A stretch of DNA of 44,178 nt from the NCBI GenBank assembly GCA_017936665.1, contig JAGBFB010000023.1:70457-114634 (forward strand). The letters run 5' to 3'. This document shows positions 20,977 to 29,464 of the stretch, one piece after another. The DNA is from Spirochaetaceae bacterium (GTDB lineage Bacteria; Spirochaetota; Spirochaetia; Treponematales; Treponemataceae). Positions within the stretch are counted from its first letter, which is position 1, and every line of letters begins with the position of its first letter. The translations under genes and the position numbers were made by a program. Below the pieces are notes generated by a model. The model was not told where the DNA came from and did no database searches. It saw nothing but the letters and a program-made list of their open reading frames with translations.

Positions 20977-21396
20977 ATGAATAATTCTTTAGAAACAGTT
21001 AAAATTAATTTTCCACAAGGACTTTTTGGATTTGAAAATTGTACATTATTTTCACTTACAGAAGCTGAATATAATCCTTTTTATTGGTTACAATCAGAAC
21101 AAGATAAAACTCTTTCTTTTTTAGTTGTTGATCCTTTTATTTTCTTTAGTGATTATGAGTTGGATATTGATGATACATCCTTAGAGGCAATAAAAGTAGA
21201 TTCACCTTCTGATGTTGTGGTTTTAACAATTATTACAATTCCAGGAAATGGAAAAAATTTAACTGCAAACTTGCAAGGACCATTAGTTATAAATAAAACT
21301 AATAATATGGGAATGCAAGTAATTTTATCAGATTCAAAATGGACAACAAAACATTGTCTTATTGCAGAAACTAGCAAGGACGGTGATAAATGTTAA
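20977..21396 (+). CDS. fliW: Flagellar assembly factor FliW
   Basis: 139-residue beta-barrel protein of the FliW family ([26 protein letters not shown] near the C terminus). FliW binds free flagellin and also binds CsrA; when flagellin is exported, FliW is released and sequesters CsrA, so flagellin translation rises. A GTG at 20974 is also in frame, but GGAG at 20967-20970 is spaced better for the ATG at 20977. It overlaps csrA by 7 bases, which ties synthesis of the antagonist to its target. This adjacency is a known arrangement in Firmicutes and spirochaetes. Confidence 0.94.
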
Positions 21397-21617
21397 TATT
21401 GACTCGAAAAATAAACGAAAAAATAAAAATTGGTAATGAAATAACTCTTTCTATTATAGAAATAAAGGGCGAACAGGTTAAAATTGGCGTTGAAGCACCA
21501 AAAGAAGTGAAAGTTTTTAGACAAGAAGTTTTTAATGCTATTCAAAATGAAAACCGCGCCGCCGCAGTTTCTCCTGATACCATTTGTTCGTTGTCTAATT
21601 TATTTCAGAATAAATAA
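21390..21617 (+). CDS. csrA: Carbon storage / translational regulator CsrA
   Basis: 75-residue RNA-binding dimer. [18 protein letters not shown] and the [18 protein letters not shown] stretch are diagnostic; the Arg of VFRQE is the position that contacts GGA in RNA. The C-terminal tail (about 58-75) is longer than in E. coli CsrA, as is usual in FliW-containing organisms, where it contributes to FliW binding. AAGGA lies 9 bases upstream within fliW. Last gene of the operon. Likely targets in this window are the flagellin and flaG leaders. It ends 3 bases from the convergent tsaB with no hairpin. Confidence 0.97.
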
Positions 21618-27253: not shown

Positions 27254-28108
27254 CTAGCTAAGCAATCTCAAAACGTTTTGTGATTGAGAATTTGCTTGTA
27301 CGAGCATAGCTGTTCCAGATTGTGTGAGGATCTGGTTTTTTGTATACTCTACCATTTCGCTTGCCATATCAGAGTCACGAATACGTGATTCTGCAGCTTG
27401 TAGGTTTTCTGCAGCAACTGCAATTCCTTTAGCAGCAATTTCAAAACGATTTTGATATGCTCCTAAATCTGCTCTTTGTCTGTTTACAGACTTCATAGCA
27501 TTGTCTAATGTTGCAATAGACATATTTGCAGCATCTGGTGTAGCAATTGAAATTCTTTCATCAGAACCTTGAGTTCCTGTTAATCCAAGAGCTTGTGCTG
27601 TCATAGTTCCAATGAAAACTTGTTCATTTTGGTCAACATTTGCACCAATTTGGAACTGCATAATACGACCTGAAGCAGAATCTGTTGCAAAAGCACCTGT
27701 TAACATATTCATTCCGTTAAATTGTGCTTGTGAAGCAATTCTATCAACTTCTGCTACAAGTTGTGAAACTTCAACTTGAATTTGCATTCTATCTTCATCA
27801 GTATAAATACCGTTTGCAGATTGAACAGCTAATTCTCGGATTCTTTGTAAGATATCTGTTGTTTCAGACAAATATCCTTCAGTTGTTTGAATAAAAGAAA
27901 CACCATTTTGAATATTTCTTTCTGCTTGATTCAAACCTCTGATTTGTGAGCGCATTTTTTCTGATACTGCTAATCCAGAAGCATCGTCACCAGCTCTATT
28001 AATGCGCTGACCTGAACTGAGTTTTTCAATGTTGCCTGCAAGTTGAGAATTTGAAACTCCCAATGTGCGATTGGCATACATAGAACTCATATTATGATTG
28101 ATAATCAT
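27254..28108 (-). CDS. flaB: Flagellin, FlaB type (copy A)
   Basis: 284-residue filament core protein of the periplasmic flagellum. The N-terminal D0/D1 helices ([18 protein letters not shown], then [20 protein letters not shown]) and the C-terminal helix ending SQNVLRLLS match spirochaetal FlaB, which has a short central domain. It has no signal peptide, as export goes through the flagellar system. GGAGG lies 6 bases before the ATG. The 120-base leader has three hairpins and several GGA motifs. It lies 310 bases downstream of copy B, which is clearly a paralogue. Which FlaB number this corresponds to cannot be told. Confidence 0.96.
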
Positions 28109-28230
28109 AAATCGCCTCCATGTGATTTAGTTTTTTCAAACTATGACCTAAAAGCCATTCCGTGCTTTTAGCTATCCAAAAATATAAAACTGCGCCTTTT
28201 ATATTTTTATCCAGTATTGTCAAACAGTAT
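28109..28230 (-). promoter_or_regulatory. Structured leader of flagellin copy A, probable CsrA target
   Basis: Three hairpins in the minus-strand RNA: AAAAATATAAAA with its 12-base complement (28178-28208); CTAAAAGC/GCTTTTAG (28148-28171) with loop ACGGAATG that exposes GGA; and TAGTTT/AAACTA (28128-28143) with a GAAA tetraloop. Further GGAs lie at the first hairpin and in the GGAGG ribosome site. Confidence 0.6.
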
Positions 28231-28265: not shown

Positions 28266-28342
28266 ATACAAAAAAAATGGAGAATTTTTATGATTTTTTT
28301 TGCGGGATGTAGAATATTGAATGAAAAACCATCCGCTTGAGC

Positions 28343-28366
28343 AGGGTAGAGTAAAACTCATACCCC
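28343..28366 (-). terminator. Possible terminator of flagellin copy B
   Basis: GGGGTA/TACCCT plus GAG/CTC around TTTTA form a stable hairpin about 50 bases after the stop at 28419. Only a short T run follows about 14 bases later. The rest of 28266-28418 shows no gene. Confidence 0.4.
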
Positions 28367-28418
28367 GTTCAAACTTTGATAATGAAAAGACTTAATTTAT
28401 CTTTCCATAACCAGCACA

Positions 28419-29279
28419 CTATCTAAGCAAAGATAACACGTTCTGGCTTTGTGCGTTAGCCTGAGCCAACATAGCTGTACCAGATTGTGTAAGAACTTGA
28501 TTTTTAGTAAACTCAACCATTTGAGCAGCCATATCTGTATCACGGATGCGTGATTCAGCAGCTTGAAGGTTTTCAGCTCCAATATCAATTCCGTTTACAG
28601 TGTGTTCAAGACGGTTTTGGTAAGCACCAAGATCAGCTCTTTGTTTGTTAATCTTTTTCAATGCTTCATCAAGAGTACCGATGGCACGGTTGGCATCATC
28701 CGGAGCAGCAAGACTCATAATTGTTTCAGTTCCTAATTCTTTAAGACCAAGAGCAGTTGATGTCATTGTTCCGATGAAAACTTGTGTTCTTTGATCCATG
28801 TTAGAACCGATATGGAACCACATAGAAGCTGTAACTACGTTTTCACCTGTTGATTGTGCGAAACGACCTGTAAGCATATTCATACCATTGAATTGTGCTT
28901 GAGAAGCAATTCTATCAACTTCTGCTACTAATTGTGAAACTTCAACCTGAATCTGCATTCTGTCTTCATCAGTATAGATACCGTTTGAAGCTTGAATTGC
29001 TAATTCACGAATTCTTTGTACGATATCAGTTGTTGATTGTAAATATCCTTCTGTTATTTGGATAAAACTGATAGCGTTTGAAGCATTTTGTGAAGCTTGA
29101 TTCAAACCTCTAATTTGGCTTCGCATTTTTTCAGAAACTGCGAGTCCTGAAGCATCATCACCTGCGCGATTAATACGCATACCTGATGAAAGTTTTTCCA
29201 TATCTTTTTGGATAGAGTTGTTTGTAACTCCCAAAGTACGATTGGAATACATTGCTGACATGTTGTGGTTGATAACCAT
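28419..29279 (-). CDS. flaB: Flagellin, FlaB type (copy B)
   Basis: 286 residues, closely similar to copy A over its whole length ([39 protein letters not shown] terminus SQNVLSLLR). It differs mainly in the central part, for example an extra [20 protein letters not shown] stretch. An upstream in-frame ATG at 29372 would lie within the leader hairpin. GGAGG 7 bases before 29279 marks the real start. It is transcribed from a sigma-28 promoter about 160 bases upstream through a long GGA-rich leader. Its codon use includes more C and G third positions than copy A, consistent with high expression. Confidence 0.96.
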
Positions 29280-29373
29280 AATTTTTCCTCCATGGAAATT
29301 TAATTTTAAGACAGAATCCGTTCCGTCCTTTTGTTTAATGTTTGATACAAGCGTATAAAACGTTTGTATCAAA
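29280..29373 (-). promoter_or_regulatory. Structured GGA-rich leader of flagellin copy B
   Basis: The minus-strand RNA has a perfect 10-pair hairpin TTTGATACAA/TTGTATCAAA (29341-29373). Next come three closely spaced GGAs (29317-29328) and two more in the ribosome site GGAGGA (29286-29291). Such paired upstream and Shine-Dalgarno GGA clusters are the hallmark of CsrA-controlled flagellin leaders. Confidence 0.6.
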
Positions 29374-29437
29374 CCAGTAAATTGTATAATGCACGTTTAA
29401 AGGCTACATACGTGAAAAATACAGTTTTCTATATTTC

Positions 29438-29464
29438 TTATCGGTAAGTTGTCTAAAAAACTTA
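29438..29464 (-). promoter_or_regulatory. Sigma-28 (FliA) promoter of flagellin copy B
   Basis: Minus strand: TAAG (29461-29464), 16 bases, CCGATAA (29438-29444), the same spacing as the flgN promoter. Expected start near 29430, giving a leader of about 150 bases. Confidence 0.75.

What the first reader, a model, noticed from the sequence alone, without database searches (positions are those of the whole stretch)
28109..28230. Flagellin copy A leader presents GGA in a hairpin loop
The leader folds into three successive hairpins. The middle one, CTAAAAGC/GCTTTTAG, has loop ACGGAATG, the kind of looped GGA that CsrA prefers, and a further GGA lies in the ribosome site. fliW and csrA are encoded 6 kb away. 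CsrA repression of flagellin through such paired sites, relieved by FliW, is established for B. subtilis hag, and CsrA repression through the flaB leader for Borrelia.
Basis: partly seen in the sequence, partly recalled or inferred. Interest (0 to 1): 0.6.

Follow-up and report, generated by a model that had tools for sequence, protein, structure and literature searches.

The report
CsrA-type hairpin in Treponema flagellin leaders
The untranslated start of this spirochaete's flagellin messages carries a small RNA hairpin that matches the known docking site of the repressor protein CsrA, and the same hairpin is conserved at flagellin genes across the spirochaete phylum, so spirochaetes probably adjust flagellin translation the way Bacillus and Campylobacter do.

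Summary
On the minus strand the copy A (FlaB3-like) leader folds as described, with loop ACGGAATG and a second GGA in the Shine-Dalgarno (SD) site; such a GGA hairpin arises in 0.2% of shuffles. It is not isolated. Copy B (FlaB1-like) has the better site (loop ACGGAT). In about 70 related flaB1 leaders the stem changes through compensatory mutations while the loop stays ANGGAN, the published CsrA consensus. A model of that hairpin plus SD hits 212 of 296 Spirochaetota genomes; all 49 hits checked lie at flagellin start codons. csrA and fliW are each found in 267 of 296. Copy A belongs to a more elaborate leader class: GGCGC-loop hairpin, GGA (or GA) hairpin, and a covarying SD/anti-SD helix. 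Rfam's orphan Termite-flg RNA is part of this class; the window is a divergent relative, below its cut-off. Best reading: CsrA represses both flagellins at hairpin plus SD, relieved by FliW. Binding is untested here; prior work predicted it (T. denticola) or showed it (Leptospira). Following the motif also exposed Rfam's orphan TD-2 RNA as carrying two CsrA-type hairpins, a candidate CsrA sponge in FliW-bearing bacteria.

The parts
28148..28171 (-). GGA hairpin of copy A leader, CTAAAAGC-ACGGAATG-GCTTTTAG; GGA at 28161-28159; candidate CsrA site 1
   Evidence: Fold; 0.2% of shuffles; hairpin at orthologous place in most flaB3-type leaders with covarying stem
28115..28122 (-). Shine-Dalgarno CATGGAGG of copy A with second GGA; candidate CsrA site 2
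   Evidence: Sequence; 39 nt between the two GGAs; CATGGAGG nearly invariant in flaB3-type leaders
28129..28142 (-). Third hairpin AGTTTGAAAAAACT between site 1 and SD; would shorten the path between them
   Evidence: Fold; not seen in relatives
28177..28209 (-). First hairpin, loop GGCGCAG; counterpart of the conserved GGCGC-loop hairpin of flaB3-type leaders and of Rfam Termite-flg
   Evidence: Fold; GGCGC at -88, in relatives mostly -75 to -91; R2 model aligns here, weakly, 17.8 bits
28277..28283 (-). Anti-SD TCTCCAT, complementary to SD ATGGAGG (28121-28115)
   Evidence: At -175, inside the range (-160 to -200) of the covarying anti-SD in relatives; window alone p 0.17
27254..28108 (-). 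Flagellin copy A, FlaB3-like, 284 aa
   Evidence: Pfam Flagellin_N and Flagellin_C
29308..29329 (-). GGA hairpin of copy B leader, AGGACGGA-ACGGAT-TCTGTCTT; canonical ANGGAN hexaloop
   Evidence: R1 model 55.5 bits, window left out of the model; 0.05% of shuffles
29286..29299 (-). Copy B SD in a short self-hairpin, TTCC-ATGGA-GGAA, presenting a second GGA
   Evidence: Fold; pairing across relatives, outer pair covaries
28419..29279 (-). Flagellin copy B, FlaB1-like, 286 aa
   Evidence: Pfam Flagellin_N and Flagellin_C
29438..29464 (-). sigma-28-like promoter of copy B, TAAG-N15-ACCGATAA
   Evidence: Read from sequence; same -10 element CCGATAA as mapped T. denticola flaB2 promoter (PMC9481697)
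20974..21396 (+). fliW, CsrA antagonist
   Evidence: PF02623, E 1.9e-41
21390..21617 (+). csrA, with C-terminal extension like B. subtilis CsrA
   Evidence: PF02599, E 7.8e-23; best solved match 1t3o, E 2.8e-18; also 5dmb

Best explanation
Both flagellin messages of this Treponema are targets of CsrA. A CsrA dimer docks on the GGA in the hairpin loop and bridges to the GGA in the SD, blocking ribosomes; when flagellin is exported, FliW is freed, binds CsrA and lifts repression. Copy B (flaB1-like) has the phylum-wide form: ANGGAN hairpin directly upstream of an SD that is itself in a small GGA-loop hairpin. Copy A (flaB3-like) has the same two sites inside a longer leader related to the Termite-flg RNA, in which the SD can also be masked by an anti-SD about 160 nt upstream; CsrA is then one of at least two layers. 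Shown: the elements, their conservation and covariation, and the presence of csrA and fliW. Inferred: binding, bridging, repression and FliW relief.
For: Fold and shuffles. Covariation of the copy B-type stem: 127 cells changed on both sides against 47.8 +/- 5.4 in shuffles, 0 of 500, all slid controls far lower; the loop A and GGA are invariant although only GGA was required in choosing the windows. Model R1, built without the window, hits the copy B leader at 55.5 bits and 212 of 296 phylum genomes; 29 of 29 best and 20 of 20 spread hits sit at a flagellin start, including a 1.1 Mb genome of the same family and many distant families. csrA and fliW each in 267 of 296. CsrA resembles FliW-partnered CsrAs. 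Spacing 39 nt lies in the 10-63 nt bridging range (PMC7652899). CsrA binds flagellin leaders in Leptospira by EMSA (PMC8668096) and represses C. jejuni flaA via two GGA stem-loops (PMC4894983).
Against: Copy A has an 8-nt loop and is missed by R1. In 48 of 78 orthologous leaders the loop is ANGA, not GGA, with the stem conserved, so another binder or only a weak CsrA site is possible. The SD of copy A is predicted to be paired already. SELEX suggests very stable stems are disfavoured by CsrA, while these stems have 7-10 pairs. Co-occurrence with csrA/fliW is confounded with having flagella at all. No expression or binding data exist for this organism.
Confidence: 0.72

Rival explanations
1. 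The copy A leader is mainly a structured riboregulator that masks its own SD through a long-range anti-SD helix and responds to something other than CsrA (a ligand, temperature, ribosome transit from flaB1, or a boxA/Nus-type elongation complex); the GGA hairpin is a structural arm.
For: SD/anti-SD pairs covary: 53/68 and 52/68 paired against 43.2 and 32.2 for shuffled labels. GGCGC loop conserved in nearly all leaders. boxA-like GWTYTTTGAM in 70 of 78 leaders, 0.2 expected. The hairpin keeps its stem after losing a G in many species.
Against: The same hairpin with an intact ANGGAN loop stands alone in flaB1 leaders and phylum-wide without this structure. The window has no boxA, and its P1/P2 helices are degenerate.
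Confidence: 0.2
2. The hairpins only stabilise the mRNA or set RNase cleavage and do not regulate translation.
For: Hairpins near 5' ends often stabilise mRNAs (general knowledge); the stems are long.
Against: A pure stability stem would not need an invariant ANGGAN loop amid a freely varying stem, nor a fixed place just upstream of the SD.
Confidence: 0.05
3. The resemblance is chance in an AT-rich intergenic stretch.
For: Hairpins are common at 32% G+C; the anti-SD match in the window alone has p 0.17.
Against: Shuffle frequencies 0.002 and 0.0005 for the two copies; orthologous conservation and covariation.
Confidence: 0.03

Closest known systems
Bacillus subtilis hag leader (CsrA/FliW/Hag partner switch)
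   Same: Flagellin mRNA, two CsrA sites, one over the SD; csrA and fliW next to each other near flagellar genes; CsrA with C-terminal extension
   Different: Two paralogous flagellins each with its own leader here; copy A adds a GGCGC hairpin and long-range anti-SD; no binding data
Campylobacter jejuni flaA leader
   Same: GGA in stem-loops of the flagellin leader, FliW as antagonist (PMC4894983)
   Different: Different sequence and arrangement; in C. jejuni csrA and fliW are unlinked
Spirochaete precedents: Borrelia flaB, Leptospira biflexa flaB3 / L. interrogans flaB4, T. denticola flaB1/flaB2 prediction
   Same: Same phylum, same regulator, GGA near the SD of flagellin; T. denticola has the same flgN-flgK-flgL-fliW-csrA cluster (PMC9481697)
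   Different: The passages read treat sites near the SD; none describes the conserved upstream ANGGAN hairpin, its covariation, or its phylum-wide spread
Rfam RF01729 Termite-flg RNA
   Same: Upstream of the flaB3-type flagellin in termite treponemes; GGCGC loop and a 3' GGA hairpin
   Different: The window does not reach its cut-off; outer helix not recognisable; the Rfam model stops before the SD and lacks the anti-SD helix

Membership tests
CsrA-controlled flagellin leader (hag / flaA type) | GGA in a hairpin loop upstream of the SD | tested here: met
   (copy A 8-nt loop; copy B ANGGAN hexaloop)
CsrA-controlled flagellin leader (hag / flaA type) | Second GGA overlapping the SD, within 10-63 nt | tested here: met
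   39 nt in copy A; bridging range from PMC7652899
CsrA-controlled flagellin leader (hag / flaA type) | csrA and fliW present in the genome | tested here: met
CsrA-controlled flagellin leader (hag / flaA type) | Match to the conserved spirochaete hairpin+SD model R1 | tested here: inconclusive
   Copy B 55.5 bits; copy A no hit at E<=1
CsrA-controlled flagellin leader (hag / flaA type) | Direct CsrA binding, repression, relief by FliW | not testable with these tools
   Needs gel shift, reporter and mutants
Rfam RF01729 Termite-flg | Score at or above gathering cut-off | tested here: not met
   No hit in window; hits at 53-62 bits in flaB3 leaders of five termite-type loci
Rfam RF01729 Termite-flg | Place upstream of flaB3-type flagellin, GGCGC-loop hairpin, 3' GGA hairpin | tested here: met
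Rfam RF01729 Termite-flg | Outer P1 helix | tested here: inconclusive
   Degenerate in the window alignment; R2 hit only 17.8 bits, not above background
Rfam RF03162 TD-2 (L092, elsewhere in this genome) | Score at or above gathering cut-off | tested here: not met
   42.7 bits against 48.7

The most novel reading that the evidence does not exclude
Treponemes combine FliW with RNA antagonists of CsrA. The orphan TD-2 RNA (dozens of copies in several Treponema genomes, one divergent copy in this genome within a 215-nt stretch with five CANGGATG sites) is a CsrA sponge, and the orphan Termite-flg RNA is a CsrA-controlled flagellin leader with a second, SD-masking layer.
Probability: 0.35. Interest if true: 0.8.

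Novelty: new variant of a known kind. Interest (0 to 1): 0.6.

Why it matters
It replaces scattered single-species reports with one testable element at flagellin start codons across the spirochaetes, proposes a function for two orphan Rfam motifs, and offers systems to test an explicitly open question: whether FliW and sponge-like RNAs control CsrA together in one bacterium (stated as undetermined in PMC7652899).

Tried and rejected
A sigma-70-like site (TGGACG-18-TATAAT, 28258-28229) was considered as the copy A promoter; promoter-like sites were no more frequent than in shuffles, and alignment shows TATGGACGATT is a remnant of a conserved leader arm, so the start site is left open. A covariance model of the flaB3-type core (R2) was too weak to decide: window 17.8 bits, similar to SD-driven background, though it found several termite leaders at the exact place. 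csrA/fliW co-occurrence with the hairpin was counted but not used as independent proof, since they are lost together with flagella. A fixed-spacing search for CANGGATG arrays missed this genome's own copy because its spacings fall outside the pattern. In the ANGA hairpin set the invariant letters partly follow from how windows were picked; the unbiased count is the one to rely on. No named T. denticola genome could be searched. Terminator reading of hairpin 1 rejected: its stem is almost only A-U.

Full report
What is there. The features lie on the minus strand. The leader of flagellin copy A (start codon 28108-28106) folds into three hairpins, the middle one CTAAAAGC-ACGGAATG-GCTTTTAG (28171-28148), with SD ATGGAGG at 28121-28115. 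The fold is more stable than all 200 shuffles (z -2.9), and a GGA-loop hairpin as strong occurs in 0.2% of shuffled leaders. fliW and csrA lie 6.5 kb away. The window is from a Treponema-like genome of 2.58 Mb; copy A resembles FlaB3 and copy B FlaB1 of T. denticola by order and length, and a third flagellin lies on another contig with no such hairpin evident in its leader.

Copy B has the same thing in canonical form. Its leader holds AGGACGGA-ACGGAT-TCTGTCTT (29329-29308), a hexaloop ANGGAN, followed by an SD that is itself in a small hairpin TTCC-ATGGA-GGAA. A sigma-28-like promoter lies upstream.

Relatives. From 80 flagellin loci of named genomes I took the leaders of both paralogues. In flaB1-type leaders the best hairpin near the SD has an ANGGA loop in 62 of 70 without selecting for it. 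In 42 non-redundant examples all eight pairs show compensatory change: 127 double-change cells against 47.8 in shuffles, with A and GGA of the loop invariant. CANGGANG closed by C-G is the CsrA/RsmE consensus as I know it; the SELEX consensus RUACARGGAUGU with mostly six-nucleotide loops is documented in PMC7652899. A covariance model of hairpin plus SD built without the window (R1) scores the window's copy B at 55.5 bits and hits 212 of 296 Spirochaetota genomes. All 29 best hits and all 20 hits picked across distant genera start a flagellin gene. csrA and fliW are each in 267 of 296 genomes. The few complete genomes lacking both are mostly one family without strong R1 hits; this is consistent but confounded by loss of flagella.

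Copy A's class. R1 does not see copy A. Its orthologous leaders form a larger structured class: GGCGC in a hairpin loop mostly 75-91 nt before the start (window -88), then a hairpin that has ANGGA in 20 and CANGANG in 48 of 78 leaders, with covarying stem in the ANGA form too. Five termite-type leaders match Rfam Termite-flg above cut-off and three more just below; its 3' hairpin is this GGA hairpin. Termite-flg was published as a probable cis-regulator, not judged a riboswitch, found only in termite gut (PMC2864571). The window does not reach its cut-off, so I call it a divergent relative, not a member. A further conserved piece, absent from the Rfam model, is an anti-SD 160-200 nt upstream that pairs with the SD; the two flanking positions covary (G-C, A-U, U-A). 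The window keeps TCTCCAT at -175. Most leaders also begin with a boxA-like GWTYTTTGAM (70 of 78, 0.2 expected); the window lacks it.

How it works. Most likely CsrA docks on the hairpin GGA and bridges to the SD GGA (39 nt apart; bridging range 10-63 nt), blocking ribosomes, and FliW, freed when flagellin is exported, lifts this. Each step after the sequence evidence is inference from B. subtilis, C. jejuni and Leptospira. For copy A the SD-masking helix is a second layer, and the loss of one G in many relatives suggests CsrA control there may be weak or replaced in some lineages.

What is new. The T. denticola paper already notes CsrA sites near the SD of flaB1 and flaB2, and Leptospira CsrA binds flaB leaders. 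New here, as far as the papers held show: the conserved upstream hairpin, its covariation and phylum-wide reach; the link of Termite-flg to it; the SD/anti-SD helix.

A lead outside the window. R1's second hit in this genome (L092) is a 215-nt intergenic stretch after an HD-GYP gene with five CANGGATG sites; only five others were found in the whole 216 kb of strand sampled. It matches Rfam TD-2 at 42.7 bits (cut-off 48.7). The TD-2 consensus has two hairpins with GGAU loops of the CANGGAUG kind; TD-2 occurs in 41 of 80 Treponemataceae genomes, at 44 or more copies in several. TD-2 loci hold 35 ANGGAN hairpins against 2 for control loops (partly circular, since the loci were chosen by the model). 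This makes TD-2 a candidate CsrA-binding RNA. No paper held links them. Expression is unknown.

Noticed in passing
L092 1569-1341 minus (G000:C14, same genome): 215-nt intergenic stretch with five CANGGATG sites, most in hairpins; sub-threshold match to orphan Rfam TD-2; candidate CsrA sponge RNA. TD-2 itself carries two CsrA-type hairpins and is dispersed in up to 44+ copies per genome in several Treponema genomes.
   Followed up: partly
flaB3-type leaders of L013-L086, e.g. L017, L036, L054: The hairpin before the SD keeps a covarying stem but its loop is C-ANGAN-G, one G short of GGA, in 48 of 78 leaders; flaB1 leaders of the same genomes keep ANGGAN.
   Followed up: partly
flaB3-type leaders, about -190 (not in the window): boxA-like GWTYTTTGAM in 70 of 78 leaders, 0.2 expected by shuffling; suggests Nus-factor involvement between flaB1 and flaB3.
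   Followed up: partly
flaB3-type leaders, GGGCGC loop and following AGCCY: Loop GGGC looks complementary to GCCY just downstream of the hairpin in many leaders, a possible pseudoknot.
   Followed up: no
flaB1-type leaders; window about 29400-29430 minus: Second conserved element GAUGUAGCCUUGUAA inside a long stem near the 5' end; window has CGTATGTAGCCTTTAAACGTG.
   Followed up: no
G057, G071, G147, G158, G010 (other spirochaete families), e.g. L186, L174: Runs of CANGGATG sites several units long, hinting at further multi-site CsrA-binding RNAs.
   Followed up: no
window 28339-28369 minus: Hairpin GGGTATGAGTTTTACTCTACCC just after the copy B stop codon, without a T run; possible processing site.
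   Followed up: no
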